Shown one piece after another: positions 4,257-54,258 of a DNA stretch of 64,000 nt. The notes under the pieces were generated by a model that worked only from the letters and a program-made list of their open reading frames with translations, did not search any database and was not told the origin of the DNA. Made by a program: the position numbers and the translations under genes. Origin of the DNA: Puccinia triticina (taxonomy: Eukaryota; Basidiomycota; Pucciniomycetes; Pucciniales; Pucciniaceae). The stretch covers positions 4,836,001 through 4,900,000 of the forward strand of contig NC_070566.1 of assembly GCF_026914185.1 (NCBI RefSeq), in the 5' to 3' direction. How positions within the stretch are numbered: the stretch's first letter is position 1; each line of letters opens with the position of its first letter.

Positions 4257-5545
4257 AGCTCAAATTGTATGTGCCCAGCCCATCCATGGTCAAGCTCACC
4301 CTCTTCCTTCTGACCTTCTGATTTACCCTCTCTTCTCAAAACCTCCAGTCTCACCTTTCTTCCATGGCTTACTTATCTTTCCCTCTGCATGTTCGCTTCC
4401 TCGTAGTCGTCGGCAGCACCACTTCGCGACACAGCTGAGCTCTTCCAAAGACCCCTTCCAGGTTGTTGTTGCCAAGAAAACCGTTGTGTATGTCGCCAAA
4501 AACATCGATGGCGACGGGCAAACATCCGCCTGGAGACAGATTTTGAGCTGCTACATACTCTTCAAGGAGGACCAGGTCTGCAATATTCAAAACTACAAAT
4601 TAATTTTGTGATGTTGTGATAAAATGCTACCATTTTAAGTTGTCCCTTTTCAGCTATACTCAAATTAAGTTCCTCTACACTGCTCAACATCAAATAATAT
4701 GTTTACAACTGAGAGTGCCAGAATGATAAAGCACCTTAGACCATCAATTTGTGATGAGTTTATGAATGGGATGGATGATGATGAATATTTGTGTCTTATC
4801 GTCATCAGCTCAATTGGTAACTTCATAATAATAATGTTCTCAGCTCTCTAATTGAGGATAACCAGTGTATTGAAGTTTCCAGAATATCCAAATGCTAAAA
4901 ACAACAGAGGGAAGCTAAGACTATCAAATCCATAATTGTGTTATGGGTCTCTGTTCAAATTGAGACCAATCAAGAAGTATGTGTGGAAAGAGGCTGGGAG
5001 TGGATGATGAATATTCCATATTAGGGAGAGCTCTGCAGACCACACTGCTTAAAATTAGCTTTGTGTGACATTCTTCACTGCATTTGGGACTAAAATAATG
5101 AAGAGTGCTAAATTTTGAGGGATGTTAATTGATACAACATCTTGGTAAGTACTCCAGAGACAGAGGATTATATGAAGAGCAACCACATTGATGTTGGTGT
5201 AATTTTGGAAGTATGTACTCCTGGATTAGTGCTACTCCTGGCTGTCAACCGCATTGTTTGTTGGATGTATGTGGTATGCACCTGTAGATTATGTCATCTT
5301 TGTCAGGTGCATACCTTTGAGTATAAGCAGTGCTTACATACATGTGAAACCTGCTTACTCCCAGGATTAGTCACTACTCCATTTACTATTCCCAGGAGTA
5401 GTTACTCCAAAACTAATCTACCCCAATACAGTTGAGGGGTTGGATTAGTTACGCTAATCCAAGCTAAAATGGCAACCAATGTGGTTTCTCTAAGGGGCTA
5501 AAGCAATCAGAATTTGGGTTTGCAGCGGCAAAGCCGCCTTGGCCT

Positions 5546-6083
5546 CTAGTTTGTTTAAAGACGCTTTCAACAAATACTCTCTCAGTTTAGTCAAAATGTT
5601 CTTCAAATCTGTTAAATGCACTTCCTCTGTTCGCGAAAAAATTAGAATGTCATCAATATAAACAAAACAACAAACGTCCAAATACTCTCGTAAAACATGT
5701 TGTATGAATTGCTGAAAGGTCGCCGGTGCATTAGCTAAACCAAAAGGCATTACTTGATATTCATATAAGCCCCAAGGCGTCCTAAATGCCGTCTTCCACT
5801 CGTGACCCGGTGCCACTCGTAAAAGGTTAAAAGCCGCCTTCAAATCAATCTTTGACAAGAACTTACACTTATGCAAATTATTCAACAAGTGAGAGATAAC
5901 TGGCAAGGGATATGAATCTCTTATTGTCATGTCATTCAGCAACCTGTAGTCAACACAAGGGCGATCCGCCTTCCCTTCCACCTTTACATAAAAAATAGGC
6001 GCGGCCGCAGGTGAAGAGGAAACCTTAATGAAACCCTTAACCAAATTTTCATCAATATATTTCTTCAAAGAATCTCTTTCAAC
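5546..6083 (-). pseudogene. Ty3/gypsy reverse transcriptase fragment
   Basis: The minus-strand frame holds RT palm motifs in order: RPCVDYRLLND, LSKIDLKAAFNLLRV, TPWGLYEYQVMPFGLANAP and the catalytic CFVYIDDILIF box. This is a classic Ty3/gypsy RT. It is joined in the same frame to the upstream protease region by a single stop codon at 6084-6086, and is cut on its 3' side by the foreign block. The thumb and RNase H lie 4.5 kb away at 624-1076. The YIDD box itself is intact. Confidence 0.92.
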
Positions 6084-9654: not shown

Positions 9655-12189
9655 ATGCTCTCCCGCCCTAGCCCCTCCGCACTCGCCCTCCAGCAACCTC
9701 CCTACCAGCACCCAGCCCCCAGCCTCATGCAGCTCGACTACCCCCACCCCCACCCCCACCACCGATCACTCTCCGCCGCAACCGTCTCCGGAAGACCGCC
9801 CCCAAAGACCGCCCGCAGACAGTCCAAGCTCAACAACCTCGACCGCCGCCGCATCTGCGAGTATGCCGCCGCACACCCCAAGGCCACCCAGGAGGACATC
9901 GCCGTCCAGTGGGGCATCGACCGCTCCTCGGTCTCCAAGATCCTCAAGTACCGCGACAAGTGGCTCTCCATCTCCCCCACCGCACGCGCAGCCAAGGTCA
10001 TCAAGCACCGTGGGGGCCGCTTCCCCCAGCTCGAGACCGAGGTCGTCCGGCGCTGCAAGGAGAAGTCCGGCGCAGGCGGCTTCCTGGGCGACCGGACCAT
10101 CAAGGACGTCGCGCTCGACGTCTCCCACGAGATGGGCCTCGCCGAGGGCGCCTTCAAGGCCTCCAACGGCTGGCTCGACGCCTTCAAGGAGCGGGCCCAG
10201 ATCAAGGGCGGCCGCTTCCTCGACCTCAACGCCCACTCCCCCACCCACCCCGCCCTCTCCTTCGCCGCCGATCACCACCACTACCATCATCAACAACACC
10301 CATACCCCCCCGCTGCTGCTGCTGCTCAGGCTCAGGCTCCGGCTCCACTCCAGCTCGCCCCGATCCTCCACCAGCCGATCGAGCAGAAAAACGTCGACGA
10401 GCTCGAGGAGGAGGACGACGAGGAGGAGGAAGACGAGGACGACGACGAGGAAGAGGACGACGACGACGACGAAGAAGAGGAAGAGGACGACGAGGACGAC
10501 GAAGAGGAAGAGGAAGAGCGAGACCCCGCCCACAAGGCCCAGCACCACCAACCCACGCCCTCCCTCTCGAGCTCGAACTCGTCGACGTCCCAGGAAGACG
10601 GCTCGAACGGGGTGAAGATGCACGACCTGGCCGAGTCGCTGAAGACGCCGGTCGACGGGGCGCCGATGGACGGGCGGGCGGTGGAGACGGGCGGCGGGCC
10701 GGGCCGGGCCGGGGCCCACCGCGGGGCCCCGGCGGCGCCTGCGCCCGAGGAAGAAGAGGACGGCGGGCCGGACGCGATGGACGGCGTCGAGCCGCTGCTC
10801 CCGCCCGCGGGCGGCGCCAGCCCGGTGTTCAAGGCGCCGGTGTACACCGGCGGCGCGGGCGGGCCATACGGCGGCAGCCACCCGGCGCCGTACGCCCGGC
10901 CCGTGCGCGGCTCGTTCGACTACCCGCACCACCATCAGGGCGGGCAGCCGATGGGCCGCAGACAGCCCAGCTCGAGCCACTCCCGCTCCTCCTCGCTCTC
11001 CATCAGCTCGCTCTCCCAGCACTCCTCCTTCGCCCCGGACGACCGGGGCCCGACGCCCGGCGGCGGAGCGCTCAAGATCCTGCCCACACCCGGGCCGACG
11101 GGCGTGCCCCCGCTGACCTCCTACGGCTCCCACCCCAACTTCCACCCCGCCCCGCTCCGCTCCACGCCCGTCAGACGCACCTTCCCCAGCCTGCGCCACG
11201 CCATGTCCCACCCTGCCTTCAGCTCCTCCTCCGACCCCGCCCCCAGGCCGCCCTTCTCCGCCTCCGGCCACCAGTACGCTTCCTACCATCCCCAGCAGCA
11301 ACCGGGCGCCTTCCCCTTCTCGCCCTTCTCCGCCCCCCCGCCCCTCTCCGCCCGCGCCTCCGTCGCCGCTGGAGCCGCCGGAACACAGAGGCTCGAGCTC
11401 GCCCCCGTCTGTCCCTCCCGCGTCGGCCACGCCCTGCCCCTGCTCTACAGGGACGATACCCCCGTCGACTGGCCCCTCTCCGCCCCCCCCAACCCCGCCG
11501 ACGACGGGCCCCCGCAGGTCGGCTTCGACCAGGCGCTCGCCGCCATGGACACCCTCATGCGCTTCCTCCAGGACCAGCCCACCGGGTTCGCCAGCCCCAG
11601 AGACTACATGGTCGTCGGCGAGCTCTTCGGTACTTTCTTTCTCCCCTTACTCCGTCCTCGCTGGTCTTCTTTGCTGACTGCTCTTCGTCCTTGCTGACTG
11701 CTTGCTGGGATTCGTGCAGGCCGGATGAAGGACAAGAAGCTCGAGATGGCCGCCGCCCCCGGCCCCCCGCCCGCCAGACGCATCGGATCCTCCGCCGGCA
11801 GCTCCGCCGCCACCAGCCCTGCGCCCCCCGCCGCCGCCCCGCCGCCGCCCGCGTCTGCAGCCGCCATCAGGGGCGCAAGGGCCCCGTCGATCAGGGTCTT
11901 GCATCACCATCAGGCGCCGCATCAGCAGCATTCGCAACATTCGCAACATTCGCAACATTCACAACAACATCAACATTCGCAACATTCGCAACATTCGCAA
12001 CAACATCAGCAACACCAGCAACAACACCAGCAACAACAACATCAACAACAGCAGCACCAACAGCAGCATCACCAGCAGCAGCAACATGACTCGGACAACA
12101 CCCAGGCTCTCCCGCCCACTCTCGAGCCCAAGACCAACGGGCTCGGGCTCGTCAAGGAGGACTGCACCTCCGACCGCATGCAACTCTAG
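9655..12189 (+). CDS. CENP-B-type HTH DNA-binding protein, 814 aa
   Basis: Two exons, 9655-11629 and 11720-12189, are separated by a 90-nt GT-AG intron that restores the frame across a split glycine codon. Residues about 50-105 form a first HTH (RRICEYAAAHPKATQEDIA...SSVSKILKYRDKW). Residues about 120-190 form a CENP-B-type HTH (FPQLETEVVRRC, IKDVALDVSHEMGL, FKASNGWLDAFKERAQIKGG). A run of about 45 Asp/Glu residues follows near 245-290, then long Pro/Ser/Gly/His-rich disorder and a His/Gln repeat tail. I see no DDE transposase domain, so this is probably a host nuclear DNA-binding factor derived from, or resembling, pogo/CENP-B proteins rather than a transposase. The gene is markedly GC-richer than its surroundings. 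The DNA target is unknown. The start gives a short N-terminus before the HTH. Confidence 0.8.
11926..12087 (+). repeat. Coding trinucleotide/9-mer repeat (His-Gln-Ser tail)
   Basis: Repeats of cattcgcaa and caacat/cagcaa encode a QHSQHS then QHQQ tail at the C-terminus of the CENP-B-type protein. Near-identical 9-mers suggest slippage and length polymorphism. Confidence 0.85.
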
Positions 12190-19565: not shown

Positions 19566-22385
19566 TAGGGGTGTAAATGGGTCGGGTCGACCCGCAAAGA
19601 CCCATGACCCGATGGGTTTTGGGTCGGGTTTGGGCAGCCTTCTGGCCTCCCTTTGAGAAACCGACCCGATTGTATAATTGGGTCGGGTTTGGGCAGGGCT
19701 TTTTGCATTTGGGTCGGCCCGTGAACCCAACAAAGACCTGATTAGGAAAGGTCCCTGACTCCTGAGGAGGCTGTTGCTCTGCAATCCAGAGTCCCCGCTT
19801 TGAGAGTCTCACCGCCACACCTCCAATTACTCAATCACGAATGGCGCGATCCACCAAGCAAGCAAATAAGAATGTCATTCCCTCATCATCCGACGAATCC
19901 GACAACATTCAAGTTCATGTTCCGGAATCCGATTCTGCCTTGACTCAGAACAACCTAGCGACTCCAGGAACATCCCAGACTCCAAAGAACCCAAGAGATA
20001 ACAAGCCTACCAATCAAAATACGGAATCTGATCCGGCCGTAAGGAAGCGCAAGGCCACCAGTGATATCTGGACGCATTTTAACAAAAAGGCACATGGTAT
20101 GTTTTTTTTTTCAAATTTACAAAACGGAAATTTATTGATTTATACTTGGCTGCGCCCCAGGAAAACACGTGAAGGCAAAATGTGCCTATTGTCTATCTGA
20201 GTTGGATGGGAAAAGCACAAACGGTACGAAGCACCTTTGGCGCCACCTAGAACGATGTAGCTCCTATGCTACAAAGAGCAAACAGTCTCTGCTGAAGCTT
20301 GCGGACGGATCGGTGTCTTCTTCGTCAACGTGGAATTTTTCTCAAGAGAAATCTCGTGATCTACTTATCAAGTTGATAATTGCACACGAACATCCGTTCA
20401 CTCTAGTCGAGCAGCCGCTATTCCGAGCGTTTGTGAACTCCTTGCAACTGCGATTCACACTCTTCAGCCGTGGCACTGCAACAACCGAGGTCCTCAAATT
20501 ATATCAGTCAATGAAAGCCCAGCTTGTGAAAGATATTAGCAAAGTCAACCGGATTTCCCTGACAACCGACGTCTGGACCTCATCAAACCAGACACCCTAC
20601 ATGGTAATAACTTGCCATTTCATTGATTCCAATTGGAACCTCCGCAAACTAATCCTTAGTTTTAGGGAGTTTCCAACTCCTCATACTGGTATAGCAATCG
20701 CTGAACAGTTACTTACAACTATTGCGGAATGGAAGATTTACAACAAGGTCAGCTTTATAACGGTGGACAATGCACTAGCAAACAATACAGGCCTAGCTCG
20801 AGTGTGCTCAGTTCTGAAAGATCGAAGCACCGATCCGCCAGATATGAATGGAAAGTTTCTCCATGTTCGTTGTGCTGCTCACGTCATTAATCTTATTGTT
20901 AAGGATGGCCTCAAGCATGTCTCCTATGCCATCAACAAGATCCGGGATGGTGTCCGATATACTAGAAGCACTCCCTCTTGCAAACAGCTCTTCAAGGAGG
21001 CCATCAACCTAGCTAACATGAAAGAAGGACAAGCTCTCCCCTCGCTTGACGTTCCGACTCGCTGGAACTCGACATATCTGATGTTGAAATCAGTAATTCC
21101 GTACAAGGAAGCATTCAATAACTTGGCCTTGCAAGATGCCAACTTCACTAACTGCCCGACCGACGCTGAGTGGCACGAGATATCTGCTATGAAGGGATTT
21201 TTGGCCATTTTCGATGCGGGTGAGTATTTTTTCAAGTCGGTTTTTGTTTCACTGAATGTTCATATCATTATCTGAGCAGTTTATCTCTTTTACTGCCTGC
21301 TAGCTACAAACAAACTGGCCATGACACACTATCCAACAGCGCATGTCATCTACAAATACATGAAAACTATTGACACACAACTCAAAGCGCGCGCAAACAA
21401 CCTCAAGGATGGCCAAGCAGACCTGAGCGGCTTAATTACACCGATGCAAGATAAATTTGACAAGTACTGGGAGAAGATGAAGGACTTTGCGGCGATCAAC
21501 CTCATCTTTGATCCTCGCTGCAAACTGGCGATGATAGAATTTCTTCTTGCTGACGATCTCGGTACGGACGAAGCAGCAATTAGTGTCACCGCTATAAAAA
21601 AAACGGTCTCTACCTGGTTTAACGAGCTGTTGTCAAAGCAAACTAACTCGCATGTGGATCAAGAATCCACAGCTAGTCAACCACCTCAACAAAAATTGAC
21701 TCAAGACGACGATGATGTTGACATGCGCTTCAAGAAATACATCACAGAGATCCACTCCACCCAAGCTGTATCAACCACTGCCGAGCTCGATCTGTACCTC
21801 CAAGAACCACCTGTCGTGTCTGAATCTCGGAAATTTTCAGTTCTTGCCTGGTGGAGCACCCACCAGGGAAGATTTCCGAACCTCTCAAAGCTGGCAAAAA
21901 CTTTGCTGATGGTTCCGATGACCTCGATTGCTTCGGAATCTGCCTTCTCAACCGGTGGGAGAGTGCTCAGTGACTACCGAACGAGGATGAAGCCCGAAAC
22001 ACTCGAGGCCCTCGTATGTGCGCAAGACTGGATCCGCGGCCATGAAGGCCTATACCCGGACTCTCCGGAAACAGAAGAACTCACAGATGACTAAACATTT
22101 CATTGTTTTCATATCTTGTCAGCTATTCTACAGCAATACACAGAATTTTTCATTTATTTCTTTTGCTTACAAACTGTGCACTCATTTCTGAGATTTGCTC
22201 AGCATAAAATGTCGGGTTTACCCAAGACCCGACCCGGACCCGACCCCGACCCGACTCCTTGTAACGTGGGTCGGGTTTGGGCAGTCAATATTCACTTTTG
22301 TCTCGACCCGACCCGACCCGGGGTTCACGTTGGGTCGGGTTTGGGCACCATTTTTTGACCCAAACCCGACCCGTTTACACCCCTA
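19566..22385 (+). mobile_element. Complete hAT transposon, 2,820 bp
   Basis: Terminal inverted repeats start TAGGGGTGTAAAYGGGTCGG on both sides. Perfect 8-bp duplications CTGGGTAC flank the element, the hallmark of hAT insertion. Subterminal regions (about 19570-19740 and 22210-22380) are dense in GGGTCGGGT-type motifs in both orientations, probably transposase binding sites. The element contains one three-exon transposase gene without visible lesions. It inserted into the RT/RNase H junction of the DIRS-like element, after which the host reading (LKDW ... WVHKNKHQP) resumes. Confidence 0.95.
19841..22094 (+). CDS. hAT transposase (BED finger, RNase H-like fold, C-terminal dimerisation domain), 701 aa
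   Basis: Exons 19841-20096, 20161-21219 and 21304-22094, with introns of 64 and 84 nt, both GT-AG and phase-consistent. The first splice rebuilds a BED zinc finger: C93-X2-C96 ... H110-X3-H114 (KCAYC, GTKHLWRH). Core motifs include LTTDVWTS (Asp222) and TVDNALANN (Asp288), candidate catalytic or metal residues of the hAT RNase H-like domain, then CAAHVINLIVKDGL and VPTRWNSTYLML. The C-terminus has the dimerisation block VLAWWSTHQGRFPNLSKLA, then SIASESAFSTGGRVLSD and TLEALVCAQDWI. It cuts and reinserts DNA at 8-bp targets. No stop or frameshift is seen, so it may be functional. Confidence 0.93.
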
Positions 22386-45038: not shown

Positions 45039-45046
45039 ATGTTTGT
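45039..45046. repeat. Left TSD of the KDZ transposon
   Basis: ATGTTTGT directly before CACCCGAGAC; identical to 54251-54258. Confidence 0.96.
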
Positions 45047-45164
45047 CACCCGAGACAACACGATTTCAACTACTCAGTAGCCAGGCTCAGAAAAATTCAG
45101 AGGCTACTGAGTAGCTGAAATGCGGCTTCACGCAACCTCACTCAGACGCGCGCTACCTCACCCC
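45047..45164 (+). repeat. Left terminal inverted repeat of the KDZ element
   Basis: 118 bp starting CACCCGAGACAACACG. It contains an internal hairpin: ctactcagtagcc and the inverted ggctactgagtag separated by about 20 bp. One base differs from the right repeat (aaaattcag versus aaaatacag). Confidence 0.95.
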
Positions 45165-45649
45165 CTCACTTGTGCACTTGTAAGACTTTAATATAATAAC
45201 ACTTCCGAGACCCTTACAAGCTCGGCAGAACCTCAAGTCCGGTAAACCTTTCTTTTTGGACTTTGACATATATGAGCATGTAACTACATACACATATGAG
45301 TAACAACCTACCGGTGCCAGCTGCAAAATATCAGAGATCAACCCCCGAGCCCCGTACCCGGAGTGGGAGCCCTGAGAGCTCTTGCCCACCCGTGATAAAT
45401 CTTTCTCAGAGCAACACTGCTCCAACTCGAGCAATCGAACTTCAACTGACCAAATACACGCACTGATTCAACAGCATCAAAACTTTTGATTCTCAACCTC
45501 TCTCAAATCATCACTTGGCAAGCAGCTGTTGGGTTTGGATCACAATTTTCCTTATTTAGAACCCGTTCCTATTAAAGAAGAGTCAGCTAACTACTTCTTC
45601 TATTTCTTGATATTTTCTGTTTGTCAAGGCTTATTTATCATCAGAAACC
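45165..45649. promoter_or_regulatory. 5' region of the KDZ partner gene
   Basis: 485 bp between the left TIR and the ATG of the partner gene, so it must hold its promoter and leader. No TATA or specific operator could be named with confidence. Confidence 0.45.
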
Positions 45650-48130
45650 ATGAACAACATGTACGGCTACCCTACTTCGAATGGGCTGGAGCGGACCTCT
45701 CCGCATGATGGATATTTGAACCCCCGCAACAACTTCACTCCTCCAACCACGCGGTTCTCTGATATTCAACCAATTGATGATGGTTTGCAGCTCAACAGAA
45801 GCCTGTTATTCGATGGTAGCCAGCGGCTCAATACCGGATTGAATTTGAATGACGGCTTACAGCTTGGTGGCAGTCAGCAATACGCTGGTGTTCAACAGTT
45901 TGGCAGTGGTCAACAATTTAGCGGTCGAGGTCAACACTTCAGCGGCGGCGGTCAAAAATTTGGTGGTGGCAGCGGCGGTCAACAGTTCAGTGGTGGTGGA
46001 CAACAGTTTGATGATGGACAACAATTTTTCAGTGGTGGCGGACAACAATTCAGCGGCGGCGGACAACAATTCAGCGGCGGCGGACAACAATTCAGCAGCG
46101 GCGGACAACACTTCAGCGGCGCCGGTCAACAATCCAGTGTTGGTGGCCAAGAATTTGGCCATGGTGGTCAGCAATCTCATTCCAGCCATGGAGGCCAGCA
46201 GAACGACTCCGATGTGATGAATCCTGCCCCACAAACCTCGGCTCTTCTGCCCCCTCACTTTCCCGCCTCCACCATTGCAACCGGTCCCCGAAAGCGCAAG
46301 AGAACTAACCGCTCCACCGTCTCAGCTGCTGTCCCTGAAAGTACTCCCCCTGTGCCCACACCATCAGCACCAATTGTTAACACAAACGCAGCCAACTCAA
46401 CCACGCCAGCTACCACTGTAACCCAGTCTCAATCAATCAATCGATTCCTTGCAGACGTTAATCAACAAGTTGAAGACCGAGAGCCAGAGGAGGAAGTCGA
46501 CTATAGTCAAAAGACAGCAGATGAACTTCGAGGGATTTCAAAGGATAAGTCCAAGAAACACATGACAAATTCAGATGTTGAAGTGTTTCTGGAGTTTTAC
46601 CTTACCCAACAGAAAGACTTAGCTCTCCTAGCTATTGAACGGCAAGTCTCTGTTGAGATGGTCGAGAAGCTCTTGTTAGTCTATCTTTTTTCCATTGACA
46701 ATTCATAAGTAAATTGACTTGTTATTATCTGATTCTTCCAGGGGAAGAAAACAATCCCTTCGAGCTGCAACCATCTGGAATAACTTCATGAAGACACCCA
46801 TTGCACGAGCAATATTCAAAGAAAGTGAGAGGAGGCCCTATTAATCTTCAATTGAAACAGGCTAACTTGTATGATTCAGGCGGCAAGGGTGTTAAGGACA
46901 AAGAAGCGATGGGGAAGCTTTCTGCGATGTGGGACGCAATGACACATGATGAGAAGAGGGCCTTTGCAACCGATCCAACAGTCGGACCAGATCAAGATGC
47001 GGCATCGGAATCCAATCCAACTGGGGCGGCCGTTGTTGATATTACAACAACTGGCAACAATCCTCAAGAAACCACTACGGCAGATTTGGTTCCTACACCT
47101 CGAGTTCCGACTGTTGGCGGCTTACGGGTCTGCTCAAAGTCCTTGAAGGCAGCTCACTCACGTGTTGATAAGTGGATGACCGAGTGGCAGGCCAAAGTAA
47201 GTGCCGCCTCATTTAATCAGATGTTCTTCTACCCTCCACTGACATTATATGAACATAGGTGGTCCATGTGGCCAAGAGCTCTCACTGTGAATTTGTCCTG
47301 ATAGGCATATCCAACCACCTCTCGGCACACAACTTCCAATTTACTCGCAGTACACCTGGAGCTGCGCCATTTTCCAAACAGATCGAGCATGCAGATGGAC
47401 TGCAAAGCTACCAGAATCGACTTCAAGCATTTCTTTCTGGGTTCCGAATCAACAACATTCCAGCCCTTGTAAACAAGGCAAAGATTTGTAAGCTTATCAG
47501 CTGGTCACCCCCATCGATTTCTATTCTAACTGATGTGGTCAATTTTCACACTTTAGCACTTGCTCGTGAAGCTGCTACCGACCTGCGAACTCGTCTTGGA
47601 TCTTTTGTTGGTAAGCCAATTCAGATAAATTCAAGCGACAAACCCTTGGTTATCTCATGTAACTGATCTTCCCATACCTAGCTGAAGAAACCAATGGCTT
47701 GAAACAGTCTTGGAGCTGGGGTGACTGTGACAGTCAACTTGGTGCAATCGGTTTCAAGCTTGTCTTTCTTCCTGGTGCCAAGTCCAACCCAATATGGCTC
47801 AAGACTCTGAGCCGCGAACTCAAAGGTCCTATGATCACACTGATTAATCACGACCTCAATCAGAACCTCATTCGTGTAGTGGCCGATCAAGATGCATTGC
47901 TTGGCGTGGTTCCTCGTCGCAAGAAGAATCTTCCAAAGAAGCAACCACCTCGCACCACTGATGATACCAACAGCGAACTGGGAGCCCCGACCACCTCCGC
48001 CAACTCCACAACCAACCAACCCAAACGTAAGCAATTAACAACTTCAGGGTCACGCCATTGCGCTCAAACCCCGCTCACTGCGGCTGAGAAGGCCTTGGAT
48101 GATTCAGACGATGAAGGCGAAGACGAATGA
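45650..48130 (+). CDS. KDZ-element partner protein with Q/G repeats and HMG-box-like segment, 718 aa
   Basis: Six exons: 45650-46674, 46742-46824, 46880-47196, 47259-47487, 47557-47610 and 47682-48130. The five introns are 67, 55, 62, 69 and 71 nt, GT-AG, with all phases consistent. Residues about 75-185 are repeats of GGGQQFS. KRKRTNRS near 215 is a basic, NLS-like patch. Residues about 340-390 (LRAATIWNNFMKTPIARAIF, then MGKLSAMWDAMTHDEKRAF) have the spacing of an HMG box. The C-terminal half (CEFVLIGISNHLSAHNFQFT, KQSWSWGDCDSQLGAIGFKL) is not recognised. It ends Asp/Glu-rich. Lying wholly inside an intact transposon, it probably assists transposition or regulates it, for instance as a DNA-bending cofactor; this is inference. 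Confidence 0.85.
45889..46165 (+). repeat. Coding minisatellite for GGGQQFS repeats
   Basis: A unit around ggcggacaacaattcagcgg (21 bp with wobble) repeats roughly a dozen times in frame within exon 1 of the partner gene. Three consecutive copies near 46040-46100 are almost identical. Confidence 0.88.
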
Positions 48131-48397
48131 ATGAATTCTACAAGCTCTGTGCTCTGAGTTTTTTTGCTGTTCACTTGCGGCTTGACCGAGATTGCCTCCC
48201 TGCTCTCATTGTGTCATTTGCTTGTTGCCTTGTTGATCGCAGAACCATTACCAATTGATATACAATACATAAGTCCCTAAGTATGACATGCCACTCGATT
48301 TGATACATGTACTTCCCTTATGAGCTTCGGGGGATCCGGGGCCCCGAGATGTGAAAGCCAACACCGAGTTCCATTAGCCCTAACTTCCTACATTGCC

Positions 48398-48600
48398 CTA
48401 ACCACCGGCAAAAAGACCTACATGGCATTCGCTGCAAGACCTAGCGCGGTCCGCAGCAGGCCGCACATGGTCCGTACCCGGTGAAAACATTGCCCTAGCC
48501 CTAACCACCGGCGAAAAGACCTACATGGCATTCGCTGCAAGACCTAGCGCGGTCCGCAGCAGGCCGCACATGGTCCGTACCCGGTGAAACCATGGGGGAC
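48398..48600 (+). repeat. 103-bp tandem duplication inside the KDZ element
   Basis: Starts ctaaccaccggc at 48398 and again at 48501. Both copies include the GC-rich core cgcggtccgcagcaggccgc. Only a few bases differ. Confidence 0.9.
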
Positions 48601-50030
48601 CACTCTCATCGAGTCAGCCACATCCCAACGCATCCTACCACCACCCCCTGCCATACGGATACCGCCCCAGCTCTTCCTCTGACCATCAACATCCACCCAA
48701 TCGGTGGCTTGGTCGCTCCATCTCCATCTCGTTGCACTGGCTTCTTTGGACAGGCAAGTCCCTGTTCACTCCCTTCTCCTCCCCTCCCCAGCTAGGTGTA
48801 CGACTCTGCAACCCTCCTCCCCTCCCCAGCTAGGTGTACGACCCTGCAACCACAATTCACACTTGGCTCTCCCAAAGCCCATTTATTGCATGTACTCCTC
48901 TGACCTTCTTCTTGACCATCAGTATGTACTCGATTGATTCCTCGTTCGCTCCATCTCCATCTCCATCTCGTCGCGCTGGATTCCTTTGGATATGGTCAGA
49001 AACCCAGGCAGGTCCCTTTTACGGCTGTCTAATCCTCGGAGTGTACTTGCTTCAGTATTAGCTTCATTGCGGTGTGACTTTCACCCAACTGATATTCCTT
49101 TTTTACATCATGTTTTACGCATTAATTCTAGTGATCACCAGAGTTTCTAGATCTGCAGGTCACCGCTCTCGCTCGCTTCCTCTCATGTACATTATCGGTG
49201 CTAATGAGGCACCAATTCTGCGTCAGCCCCGAACAAAATGACTGCCTCCTGGTTGACTGAATTTTGGTGTATGTTGGTCTATGTGTTGCGTCGATATCTT
49301 GTGTAGAGATACTACTGTTAAATGTAATATATAGTCATCTGTACTGCGCTGTGTTTGGCTTCTGCAACCAGTTTTTTGTGTTTTAAATTGTCTCAGAGGC
49401 CTTGAATTGGCAAAATGCATGAAAGTGTTGTTATGCTTTTGATTTGAAGGGAATCCAAATGATTGAAACATACCTACCTACGAATGATTGAAATCATCAC
49501 TATTTAAATCCTGGTGCGGGTTGTGACAATATCAACTAACCTTATGGATACTGCTAATTCAAACTAACCAGCCTTATGGATACTGCTAATTTAAACTGGC
49601 TGATGATATGTGCCTACCAAAGGCTATACTTGATAGGAGCAGCACTTACCCAACAGCAATAAATCATGAGAACTTTCAACATTAGGCAAAAAGACATCAT
49701 GAAACTTGGGAAGCCATATCATGTTTGGCACCCTTCAACTGGAATTTTATTTGACAGATGTAGAATCTTAGTGTTTCTTGGAGTGCAGGCAGTTTTAACT
49801 GCAAGCATTGACACATTTTGCGCATATCAGATTATGTGAAACATTAGAAAAATAAAAGACAAAATTGCCCTAAAACAGGTGCTTTTTGTAGGGCAGCTGC
49901 GTAGCCATTCCCCGTAGCCTTTCACCGTTGCCTACAGCAATCTGTGCAAAGTTTGCACATCATGGATTGGTCTCTTTCTTAGTGCCAGTCATTATATGCA
50001 TCTCTGTTTTGAGTTTAACTTGGATTACAA

Positions 50031-50099
50031 TGGAGTTGAGGAAAAAAGATAAATGGAGTTGAGGAAAAAAGATAAATGGAGTTGAGGAAAAAAGATAAA
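50031..50099 (+). repeat. 23-bp tandem repeat, three exact copies
   Basis: The unit tggagttgaggaaaaaagat plus aaa occurs at 50031, 50054 and 50077, close to the 3' end of the transposase gene. Confidence 0.95.
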
Positions 50100-50262
50100 T
50101 CCAAAATCTGAAGGAGTTTTCTGTTACTCCGTATACTATAAGTTTACTGAAACTACCGTAAATTTTACAGTGTAGTTCAATAACACAAGATAGTCTGCCA
50201 GGAAGAGTGAAAGGTGTCTTTCTGATCGGCCCTGAGCTTAAGGAAGCGGCGGTAAGACATGA

Positions 50263-53200
50263 TCATCTTAAATGAATACTGTTGGCAAAAGCTGCATTTA
50301 GGTCTTCCTCCTCAAGAGCTCGCTCAAATTCTTCCTCGTCACCAATTACATTCTCCGTACCATCATCTTCATCTGCTTGTTCTTCCTGGTTATTCGTGGT
50401 TGCTGCGTTTGCACTGGCATCAAGAAAGTAACGCATGGTCACTTGATCCATTTGGCGCCAAGATTCACCCAACGTGTTATCAAAATCACCCTTGATCATC
50501 GACAGACAGCCACTTTGTTCGAGGAAAGCTATTCGGGTGACTTGGTTGCTCCAGTCGTCCATGAGCTGATCATCGTTCTCGTATGGACCTGTCTGTTGTA
50601 TAATCTTGGTCATATCTTTCTCCCAAACCAACTGAAGGGATGTGATTTCGAGAAATGCAGTGTATAGTATTCCTTTGATAAAAGATAGCTGGTCTTCGTT
50701 GACAAGAGAATTCAGTATTGGATCGGCAAGTATAGGCTTGATCCTCTCGGTTGCCCAATCTGTATCGTGCTGGAGCCCGACAATGAGAGGAAGGATTCTG
50801 TTGTGCTCGTTTATAGCCCATCGGACCGATCTTCGTACCTCTCTACCAATTCGGCGGACTTCTTCCTCCGCTCTAGTGAGCCTAGCTATGTCTCTCATTC
50901 CAGCTTGAGTGCTGGAATCAATTGCCCATGGCTCGTTGTGATTTGTTAGAATCCCATCGTTCCAAAAAGGATCATCAGGCAGCATTTGTAAAAGGGAATC
51001 GTAATCGGGTGCACTGGGTGTGGGTCGATGGGGGAATGCCCTGGTGTAAGAGATGCGGGCCCGGTTATACTTGTCTAGAACGGCTTTTAGGGCAACCGCT
51101 CGTTTCCGTAGTGATTTGACCAGGCGCTCTTTGCCTCGGGTACCTTTGATTTGGTCACTTTATCAGCTCATGGAAGAAAGGCAGGACCAGAGAGACCGTG
51201 ATCACCTCACCTAACTTTGAAGCACGCCCCATGCGCACCCGATCAAGCGGCCTTTTTTCTTCGAGAAGGGCCAAGTGCTTCCGTCGGAGTTCGGTCTTAG
51301 CGTACAACATCTTTAAAAATGCTTTTTGGTGCTCTTCAGAAATCCCTTCCAAGATTTCCGATGAGCCAAGCTTTTCCCGCTGCTCCTGGATCTGATCCAT
51401 CATGTTGCGGATTGAACGAAGTCGCGAGATAGCATCTTTGGGCGATCGGGGAATATCTGACCTATTTGAGTGCATCAGTACAAGATAGATGGGTATGAAC
51501 ATGGTCTTATCTTTACCAGGCTGTCCTGAGCTCATCCTCTAAGGAGAGCAGTTTTCCAAGCTCTATAGCTTGGTCCGCCTCGTCATCTTTGTGATTTCGA
51601 TAGTGGTCCCGCTCCTTGGTCCACTGCTCCTCAAGAAATATTTGTGTGTAGTTTTCTCCAGTGTACTGATTGGGAGACTGGTACAGGTGATTGAGACGAG
51701 ATTCACAGTCTAGAATACATTCAAGCGCCTGCTCAAGATGACGGAAAGACCAGCTCACTGGTTTGAAGAAAATTTCAACGAAACATGAAAAACACATGTA
51801 GGTAGTGTAACAATTGGCTGTCTCACTGGAATTTATCTTGAGCTTGCCTCCATAGTATTTGCAAAGGAGGGAGATTGATTGCAGTCTGTGAATTCGGGTG
51901 GCACTGCGAAGGGGCCCTACCAGATTGGACAACTGCGACCAGAGACGTTCCATGCCCTCGCCATCTGAGAGCCCCCAGCCGAGGTTGTAGCGAGGGTTGT
52001 ATTCGAGTTGGCACGACCACTGGTGGACATAAGCATGAAAAACAGATGTTCCAAACTTCACCCGCCGAATGTTGCTGCCTAAGAGGTTGCGCTGAGAAAT
52101 AAAAAGTAAGCAAAAAGGAAGAATGCAGTAATGTTGGTTGGAGGCACGACTAACCTTGCGAACATGGGCATCCAAATGACATCCAATGTCATAAAGGACC
52201 CCAAAGCTCTTTTGCGGAAATGCTTTGACCAGGTTGTCGATAATGCTCACCGGATAGTAAAGCCTATCATATTTACATGGTAGATAGTTAGTACTAGCTA
52301 AAAATATACAACATAAGAATGATACTACTCACTTTTCACCACTTTGCTCAATATTGTTGAGCTTTAGGGGAATATCGTGCCGACAGCAGCTGCCAAATAG
52401 CCCAGTATCGTCACACTTATCCCAAGAGCACGCATTGCGAACATCATTGGCTGCTTTGTGAGCATCTGAACAAGATGTCTAGATGATTGGGAATTTGCAT
52501 TCAGTAGCTTCTGAAAATCCAGGAGGTGACAAGAACATACCTCCAATCCTTGTGCATTGTTGGCAGTTGTTTCTTCATTCTGTTGGTGACCATCAATCTG
52601 AGAGGGGGGGATGAAATTGGAAGGATAATCAGCCTCCATGGGCACATCCTTACTCGCATACCTATGATGCCGGTGCTGGAAGTTCCCGTCCATCGCTATG
52701 ATGGCGTAGACCTCATCATTCGAGCCTTTCTCGTCAGCAGCCTCTGGTCCAAAGCATGATGGACACGTTGCTGCCCATCTGTCCTGGGTTGTAAGACCTA
52801 ACGTCTTGCCGAGTATTTCGGTTCGAAGGATCTGAATTCGGTTATAAATGTCAAGGGCTTGTGAAAAAGGGAGTCGTAGTTGGCGAGAGGTCCCCCGGCG
52901 GCCACGAGCTTTCAATTTCTGCTGAGAGCGCTTGTCTTGATGGAACGATAATCCAACAATGAACGAAGTGTACGGCAGACTAGATTCATACCAGAGGCTT
53001 TGGTAGAGCTGGAGCGTTGGGATCGCAAAAGCTGTACGGGGTGTTGTAGGCGAGGCTGCAATGTAACCGTAGTGGAGCAGGCGTATCGGGTCTGGGATGC
53101 ATTTGCAAAAGGTAAAGCTTTGACCCGACAATCGGTCTAAGTACGAGTTAAATTTTGTCAACAAACTGTCATATCTCTAGCTACCAGGGATTGAATATTA

Positions 53201-53694
53201 TTTCCTTATAATAACTGACCATGCGTGTGAATCAAATCAAGCTCTCGGGTAGTTACCAGCTGTGGGGCGCATGTACATTTGGTTAGGGGGAGGAGGTACA
53301 TTTGAGAGGTGGTCCAGTTTCGGGTGTGATGTTGACATGTGAAATACGCCGCGGTCATGGAGTTCTCGAGCTGCTTCCATGCTGTCACTAACTGATCGCG
53401 ACGCCGAGCATAATCAGAAACATAACTAGAAGGTTGAGCGGGGCGCATGGTTTGGTCGGCATGATTTTCTTGTTCCCCAGCTTCGTAGATATTGAGATTT
53501 TCATCAGCCCATTCGTCTTGGGGAGCAGGAGCTGCTATGCTTGTTGGCGGGGGTGGCGGGGCTTGGTTTCTTCTATTAGAGATGCGCTCTACCATACGAA
53601 TCGAGCTCGCAAGAGTACCTGGAGAGGCTGACCGTCGCTGTCGGGTACCAGGTCCTCGAGCAATAACAAAGCCAGCACGCCGCCTACTGACCAT
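50263..53694 (-). CDS. KDZ-family transposase with CxC cysteine cluster, 1001 aa
   Basis: Eight exons (minus): 53216-53694, 52541-53174, 52333-52478, 52155-52263, 51827-52091, 51517-51757, 51211-51461, 50263-51143. Introns are 41, 62, 69, 63, 69, 55, 67 nt; all phases agree and no stop interrupts. The first intron (41 nt) is unusually short. A CxC1-type cluster comes first (YFTCQHHTRNWT, TKCTCAPQ, FTFCKCIPDPIRLLHYGYIA). Then come the acidic motifs of the KDZ core: MDGNFQHRHH (Asp322), DKCDDTGLFGSCCRHD (394-396), VLYDIGCHLDAHVRK (Asp445) and GLSDGEGMERLWSQ (Glu501/504). A long helical C-terminus follows, ending acidic. It should cut at the 118-bp ends. In mushrooms KDZ elements have expanded together with TET/JBP genes; none is present here. 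Confidence 0.94.
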
Positions 53695-54132
53695 GATTCC
53701 AAGGCAATCGTGTTCTGGATTCTAATTCAAATGATGACGCAAACCAAAAAGAACTCAGTTTCTTAATATTCAACTGGAGACTGGAAATTTGCAGAGAACT
53801 CAACATATGTGTTCAGTCGTTACCAGGGATGGTCATGAATGATGGAGGAAAGTCCGTTTGATTGATTTGAGCGAGGTCGGTTTTGTATAACGTTGAGTGT
53901 ATAGGCCGGCCGGCAAGCATGAGATCCCCGGCGCGAGACGGGGGTTTGCACCGAGAAGGCTCACAACGGGAGAGGCACCTTTGCCGACGGCCGGCTGCAA
54001 GCATGCATGGACTTGAGATTTTACTGAAATATATGATTACATATTTCTGTAAGTAGCCTTGTGTAAATATTTACATACACACAGTCTTGCGGTCGACTCC
54101 TATGGAAGGTAGTGCGACTTGGCCATCGCACA
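53695..54132. promoter_or_regulatory. 5' region of the KDZ transposase gene
   Basis: 438 bp between the transposase ATG and the right TIR, so it holds the minus-strand promoter. It includes a GC-rich patch with ggccggccgg and gacggccggc near 53910-53995. Confidence 0.45.
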
Positions 54133-54250
54133 GGGGTGAGGTAGCGCGCGTCTGAGTGAGGTTGCGTGAAGCCGCATTTCAGCTACTCAGTAGCCTCTGT
54201 ATTTTTCTGAGCCTGGCTACTGAGTAGTTGAAATCGTGTTGTCTCGGGTG
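54133..54250 (-). repeat. Right terminal inverted repeat of the KDZ element
   Basis: Reverse complement of 45047-45164 with one mismatch; carries the same ctactcagtagc hairpin pair. Confidence 0.95.
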
Positions 54251-54258
54251 ATGTTTGT
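54251..54258. repeat. Right TSD of the KDZ transposon
   Basis: ATGTTTGT directly after GTCTCGGGTG; identical to 45039-45046. Confidence 0.96.

What the first reader, a model, noticed from the sequence alone, without database searches (positions are those of the whole stretch)
45047..54250. Complete, apparently intact KDZ transposon in a rust-like genome
The boundaries are fixed by a perfect 8-bp duplication (ATGTTTGT) and 118-bp inverted ends differing at one base. The transposase rebuilds to 1001 aa over eight exons without a stop and keeps its CxC cluster and the acidic motifs. Well-delimited KDZ elements with both ends and TSD are rarely described, and the near-identity of the ends points to recent movement.
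Basis: partly seen in the sequence, partly recalled or inferred. Interest (0 to 1): 0.88.

Follow-up and report, generated by a model that had tools for sequence, protein, structure and literature searches.

The report
Two-gene KDZ transposon in rust-like fungus
The stretch is a real, recently mobile KDZ jumping gene, and besides its transposase it carries a second gene, probably for a DNA-bending protein, that faces the transposase gene in dozens of related elements of the same genome.

Summary
In detail: a 9,204-bp element (45047-54250) with a perfect 8-bp target duplication, 118-bp inverted ends with one mismatch, and a 1001-aa, eight-exon transposase above the Pfam KDZ and CxC1 cut-offs. 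Three sister copies (99.5-99.8% identical) sit elsewhere with three other perfect 8-bp duplications, so the family moved recently. Only the window copy has a full open transposase frame; two sisters carry stops, one is truncated. The window copy is not complete: it lacks about 1.7 kb that two sisters have. Relatives of its product occur at 54 places in this genome; 45 lie within 15 kb of a KDZ transposase hit, all 45 convergent (shifted control: at most 6). It has a weak but consistent HMG-box signature and two conserved regions without known relatives. The element ends share CACCC and a CTAN5TAG box at base 24 across ten end types; four of the ten also have a second such box at base 58. I read this as a KDZ lineage that encodes its own DNA-bending or end-binding partner. 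The linkage is shown; the function is inferred.

The parts
45039..45046 (.). left target site duplication ATGTTTGT
   Evidence: sister copies have other perfect 8-mers
54251..54258 (.). right target site duplication ATGTTTGT
45047..45164 (+). left terminal inverted repeat, starts CACCC
54133..54250 (-). right terminal inverted repeat, 117 of 118 identical
45070..45080 (.). left box 1, CTACTCAGTAG, end position 24-34
   Evidence: box 1 is at 24 in ten end types
45104..45114 (.). left box 2, CTACTGAGTAG, inverted copy of box 1, end position 58-68
   Evidence: CTAN5TAG there in 4 of 10 end types
54183..54193 (.). right box 2
54217..54227 (.). right box 1
45650..48130 (+). partner gene, exons 45650-46674, 46742-46824, 46880-47196, 47259-47610, 47682-48130; 741 aa
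   Evidence: open in 4 of 4 copies, four GT-AG introns; relatives
45881..46185 (+). 21-bp repeats coding GGQQFSG units (N-terminal low-complexity part of the partner protein), length varies between copies in multiples of three
46742..46975 (+). HMG-box-like region of the partner protein (exons 2 and 3)
47259..47610 (+). conserved region B of the partner (exon 4), no known relative
47682..47935 (+). conserved region C of the partner (first part of exon 5), no known relative
49506..49507 (.). junction where about 1.7 kb present in two sister copies is absent
50263..53694 (-). KDZ transposase gene, exons 53694-53216, 53174-52541, 52478-52333, 52263-52155, 52091-51827, 51757-51517, 51461-51211, 51143-50263; 1001 aa

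Best explanation
A cut-and-paste DNA transposon of the KDZ superfamily with two genes. The 1001-aa transposase (CxC1 cysteine cluster plus KDZ catalytic domain) cuts and joins the ends and makes 8-bp target duplications. The facing second gene encodes a partner protein with a Q/G-rich N-terminal part, an HMG-box-like region and two conserved regions of unknown fold; I propose that it binds and bends the element ends, which carry the CACCC terminus and the boxes at bases 24 and 58, so that the transposase can bring the two ends together. Shown: element, copies, TSDs, both reading frames, the partner's constant place and orientation beside KDZ transposases, its sequence constraint, the shared ends. 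Inferred: DNA bending, end binding, and that mobility needs the partner.
For: KDZ and CxC1 over Pfam cut-offs. Four copies, four different perfect TSDs. Partner frame open in 4 of 4 copies, transposase in 1 of 4. 45 of 54 partner places within 15 kb of one of the 150 listed (of 193) window-transposase hits, 45 of 45 convergent; 2000 shifts gave mean 0.63, maximum 6 convergent. 21 of 27 pairs of CACCC-N18-CTAN5TAG ends enclose a partner (shift maximum 3), the partner points inward from the nearer end in 21 of 21, and 21 of 21 also hold a KDZ transposase hit. Perfect 8-bp TSDs in 13 of the 14 elements whose two flanks I read (the miss). Partner region B under purifying selection: dN/dS about 0.10 (C5 against C6b) and 0.21 (window against the old C4 copy), 74 codons each. 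HMG-box: profile of nine rows finds HMGB1 at E 5e-4 and 29 of 32 listed PDB sequences are HMG-box proteins by name; 6 of 9 rows match Pfam HMG_box, best 3.4e-5. HMGB1 is described as a host cofactor that Sleeping Beauty transposase recruits and that bends DNA at the inner of two sites in each end (passages of PMC7827188).
Against: The window's own HMG-like segment is below Pfam's cut-off (15.6 against 25.4 bits), the single-sequence PDB search did not find HMG proteins, only 1 of 5 joined relatives hit HMG_box (E 0.1), and within the best PDB hit the single stretch has i-E 0.93. Box 2 in its strict form is in 4 of 10 end types, the four from which it was read. Most of the 125 KDZ clusters have no detected partner, so KDZ transposases as such do not need it. 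No biochemical, expression or isolate data. The structure model of region B was useless (mean pLDDT 38).
Confidence: 0.5

Rival explanations
1. The partner is an anti-silencing or regulatory protein rather than a part of the transposition machine: it protects the element from the host's methylation and C-to-T mutation or controls transposase expression, as proposed for the TET/JBP genes of sibling elements.
For: The family is under C-to-T attack: 25 of 36 one-copy differences are C-to-T, 19 of those 25 at TCG (5% of C sites) and 22 of 25 at CpG (17%), the pattern reported for Pucciniomycotina in PMC12730594. Four partner/KDZ elements also hold a 2OG-FeII_Oxy_6 hit between the two genes, so accessory genes against silencing do occur here.
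Against: The partner has no match to an enzyme family above a cut-off, and it is far more constant beside the transposase (45 of 54 places) than the dioxygenase (4 elements seen).
Confidence: 0.27
2. The partner gene is a captured host gene, a passenger without role in mobility.
For: Accessory genes are said to be frequent in fungal KDZ elements (PMC12477816 passage citing Iyer et al. 2014; the 2014 paper itself was not held).
Against: Same place and orientation in 45 of 45 linked cases across families whose region-B proteins are 32-51% identical to the window's, with purifying selection.
Confidence: 0.06
3. The HMG-like signature is spurious and the partner is a different kind of DNA-binding or structural protein (the two-gene element itself stands).
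For: Scores below cut-offs for the window protein, no hit with the single sequence, rows joined by eye.
Against: The HMG hits of six rows and of the profile cover the same stretch, and the PDB list is nearly all HMG proteins.
Confidence: 0.15

Closest known systems
Dileera (KDZ) families of rusts, e.g. Zisupton-1_PGr of Puccinia graminis (PMC12730594)
   Same: KDZ transposase, 8-bp TSD, rust host, accessory genes beside the transposase; four partner/KDZ elements of this genome also hold a 2OG-FeII_Oxy_6 hit.
   Different: The window element has no dioxygenase hit in the listed rows; the sections of that paper that I read (10, 19, 24 part 1) do not mention a facing HMG-like gene. Its supplement and the Repbase entries were not seen, and whether this element is Dileera, Kyakuja or Zisupton was not tested.
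Sleeping Beauty with HMGB1 (PMC7827188, passages)
   Same: Two sites in each inverted end and an HMG-box protein as helper (as a working model).
   Different: There the HMG protein is the host's; here the element would encode it. Different transposase superfamily.
PIF/Harbinger (Nuwa) transposons with a Myb/SANT protein (PMC12730594, section 10)
   Same: DNA transposon with a transposase and a separate DNA-binding protein.
   Different: Other transposase, other TSD length, Myb/SANT instead of an HMG-like region.
Giant KDZ elements of Ectocarpus (PMC12477816, passages)
   Same: KDZ elements with extra genes, nested insertions and broken transposase genes that are thought to move in trans.
   Different: Brown alga; elements above 10 and up to 30 kb; no HMG partner in the passages seen.

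Membership tests
KDZ superfamily | KDZ transposase domain PF18758 over the cut-off | tested here: met
   197.2 bits against 26.6
KDZ superfamily | CxC cysteine cluster ahead of the catalytic domain | tested here: met
   CxC1 PF18802 89.1 bits against 26.9; CxC2 19.9 bits is below its cut-off of 27
KDZ superfamily | 8-bp target site duplication (as for Zisupton-1_PGr; Kyakuja has 7 bp) | tested here: met
   4 of 4 copies perfect; expectation from PMC12730594
Dileera, Kyakuja or Zisupton clade | position in a transposase phylogeny with named references | not tested
TET-positive KDZ elements | TET/JBP-type dioxygenase gene inside the element | tested here: not met
   no hit within C9:4881047-4890250 among the listed rows (152 matches, the list is cut); none in the nine ORFs
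HMG-box proteins (partner) | HMG box over the Pfam cut-off | tested here: inconclusive
   window segment 15.6 bits against 25.4; 6 of 9 rows match at E up to 5, best 3.4e-5; profile against PDB E 5e-4
HMG-box proteins (partner) | three-helix L-shaped fold | not tested
   only region B was modelled, without useful confidence

The most novel reading that the evidence does not exclude
A whole lineage of KDZ transposons carries its own HMG-box architectural factor as an obligatory second subunit of the transposition complex, matched to a two-box end code at fixed positions 24 and 58, so that what Sleeping Beauty and RAG borrow from the host is here part of the transposon.
Probability: 0.3. Interest if true: 0.75.

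Novelty: new variant of a known kind. Interest (0 to 1): 0.55.

Why it matters
KDZ elements are large, little-studied transposons tied to DNA-methylation erasers in fungi. A second gene that stays with the transposase, facing it, across many families, together with a fixed design of the ends, gives a concrete candidate for a missing subunit, a simple signature (CACCC-N18-CTAN5TAG) that found new full and short elements here, and a way to tell transposition machinery from passenger genes. It also bears on how dikaryotic rust genomes keep mobile elements despite TCG mutation.

Tried and rejected
Rejected: the partner as a TET/JBP dioxygenase (no such Pfam hit; 2OG hits lie elsewhere). Rejected: the four copies as one segmental duplication (different flanks and TSDs). 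Rejected: the 1.7-kb segment as an extra gene (1,189 bp of it have 34% G+C and no frame above 64 codons) or as purely a later insertion: about 540 bp of it (C3a 4482-5022) is a high-copy repeat, but C3a 5021-5905 is in the old C4 copy next to 4417-4482.

Led nowhere: empty site search, flanks unique apart from a short repeat; PDB search with the single partner sequence and with regions B and C (no hit to E 5); structure model of region B (mean pLDDT 38, not used); no inverted ends found in the 12 kb fetched at C8:7275000-7287000; no tRNA in the window. Against my reading: the loose end pattern has fewer matches in the genome (108) than its reversed control (286), so only its pairing around partner genes is evidence, not its count; the old C4 copy has unlike flanks, CTGAACTG and CTGAAGAC.

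Literature: no paper joining KDZ and an HMG-type partner was found (searches returned none; the one KDZ paper opened, PMC12477816, has HMG only in a reference title; the others were seen as listings). Iyer et al. 2014 was not held, so an earlier mention cannot be excluded.
Full report
Setting. The window is C9:4836001-4900000 of a held genome of 122.8 Mb in 18 contigs. The species is not given. Eighteen contigs and abundant KDZ, hAT and TET-like genes fit a Puccinia; P. triticina has 18 chromosomes per haplotype (abstract of PMC8358450, which however gives about 147 Mb), so I leave the species open.

The element. The four copies of the family in this genome are the window copy (9,204 bp, ATGTTTGT), C3:97520-108466 (10,947 bp, CCTCTAAC), C3:6627528-6633964 (6,437 bp, GGAAATGG) and C17:236944-247928 (10,985 bp, CTGATCTC), each TSD perfect. 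They are 99.46-99.77% identical over aligned bases. Of 13 two-to-two sites 12 join the window copy with C3:6627528 against the other two. The transposase frame is open in 1 of 4: two copies have a stop at residue 598, one of them another at 311, and the third lacks the C-terminal part. The two copies with the shared stop sit at different sites with their own TSDs, which suggests that broken copies were moved by proteins made elsewhere; since that stop may lie at a mutation hot spot, an independent origin in both is possible. Older, diverged ends lie on C3, C4 and C11 (80-87% identical).

Mutation. Of 36 differences seen in one copy only, in columns present in all four, 25 are C-to-T; 19 of these 25 are at TCG, where 5% of C sites are, and 22 of 25 at CpG, where 17% are. 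This is the TCG pattern that PMC12730594 reports for Pucciniomycotina (section 24). Divergence between copies therefore overstates age.

The missing segment. Two sister copies have about 1.7 kb at window 49506/49507. About 540 bp of it is a repeat found at 98-100% identity at 38 other listed places, and C3a 5021-5905 is present, at 89-96%, in the old C4 copy directly after C3a 4417-4482. The window copy has thus lost sequence, without long open frames, and is complete only as to genes.

The second gene. The plus strand of the left half holds a five-exon gene, 741 aa in the window copy, open in 4 of 4 copies, with repeat-length differences in multiples of three. In a search of the genome, a 373-aa part gave 99 exon-wise matches that group into 54 places. 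In a first test 26 of 54 lay within 15 kb of a KDZ cluster, 1.65 expected, with the nearest cluster convergent in 21; that test used 150 of 185 KDZ matches. With the window transposase as query (150 listed of 193 matches) 45 of 54 places lie within 15 kb of a hit and 45 of 45 are convergent; random shifts gave at most 9 near and 6 convergent. Copies of a family are not independent, but region-B proteins of the relatives are only 32-51% identical to the window's. Exon order is the same in the relatives inspected. Purifying selection is visible where synonymous sites are not saturated. Conversely most of the 125 KDZ clusters have no detected partner, so the gene marks a lineage and not the superfamily.

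What it encodes. No Pfam family passes its cut-off. Nine rows of one region, aligned in A1, gave an HMG-box signal: HMGB1 at E 5e-4, and 29 of the 32 listed PDB sequences are HMG-box proteins by name (that SSRP1, SMARCE1 and PMS1 hold HMG boxes is recalled); 6 of 9 rows match HMG_box, best E 3.4e-5, but the window's row stays at 15.6 bits under a cut-off of 25.4. Regions B and C, with invariant residues, have no PDB relative.

The ends. I read the ends of three other families that hold both genes: C6:6219771-6230276, C6:501524-512847 and C8:1886064-1896236, TSDs CCAGCCAA, CCGAAAAT and CTGACCAC. With the window family they share CACCC, and CTAN5TAG at exactly 24-34 and 58-68, in otherwise unlike ends. 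A pattern made from these four found 25 places (reversed control 1): 23 outer ends, one inner copy of an end in the C8 element, and one single place on C7. One pair was new, C18:1319499-1327583, with TSD GTCTTCTG, a KDZ-like frame and a partner hit inside, but with only half of box 2. The looser CACCC-N18-CTAN5TAG gives 108 places, fewer than its reversed control with 286, so the count proves nothing; of the 100 listed, however, 27 form convergent pairs under 20 kb and 21 of these enclose a partner place, against a mean of 0.14 and a maximum of 3 in 2000 shifts, and 21 of 21 hold a KDZ hit. Five further pairs were read at the base level: 5 of 5 have perfect 8-bp TSDs, among them a 4.0-kb element on C15 without partner or listed KDZ hit. 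Box 2 in strict form is absent from the six ends outside the first four; two of those six fit CTN6TAG and five of six begin with CT. Box 1 is sure; box 2 holds for part of the families.

Working model. The transposase makes the cuts and 8-bp-staggered joins (established for DDE transposases; recalled). The ends offer one or two near-palindromic sites, and the partner is a candidate to bind or bend them. The nearest described parallel is Sleeping Beauty, where host HMGB1 bends DNA at the inner of two sites in each end (passages of PMC7827188). Here the helper would be on the element. The alternative, a role against silencing, is kept as the main rival, the more so as four partner/KDZ elements also hold a 2OG-FeII_Oxy_6 hit between the two genes.

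Novelty. KDZ elements with 8-bp TSD and accessory genes in rusts are known (PMC12730594; abstract and sections 10, 19, 24 part 1 read). The facing HMG-like gene and the end signature were not found in print in the searches named under Tried and rejected; Iyer et al. 2014, Repbase and the supplement of PMC12730594 were not seen. Hence: new variant of a known kind.

Noticed in passing
C8:498651-512456, C10:1071722-1084765, C3:3059687-3069555, C10:4142538-4152465 of the own genome: Apparent three-gene elements: partner, 2OG-FeII_Oxy_6 (TET-like) hit and KDZ transposase inside one pair of ends.
   Followed up: partly
C15:2024193-2028219, C15:2074449-2078664, C15:2139991-2144220, C7:3694233-3699372, C12:4585574-4591218 of the own genome: Short (4.0-5.6 kb) pairs of the same end type without a partner or listed KDZ hit, three of them within 120 kb on C15; one has a perfect 8-bp TSD. 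Probably non-autonomous relatives.
   Followed up: partly
the four copies of the window family: Differences between copies are dominated by C-to-T at TCG (19 of 25), a sign of host mutation of repeats.
   Followed up: yes
window 20169-22094, + strand: Frames with a BED zinc finger and hAT RNase-H and dimerisation domains: a hAT transposase gene.
   Followed up: no
window 9655-11697, + strand: 680-aa frame with a Tc5-type DNA-binding domain (28.5 bits, cut-off 22.2), overlapped by a 726-aa frame on the same strand and a 554-aa frame on the other.
   Followed up: no
C3:97520-108466 element, positions 4482-5022: A nested repeat of about 540 bp, with 38 further places listed at 98-100% identity; the segment missing from the window copy starts at its left border.
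   Followed up: partly
window 48395-48593, 48776-48851 and 50029-50100: Tandem duplications of 96, 38 and 23 bp between the two genes' 3' ends.
   Followed up: no
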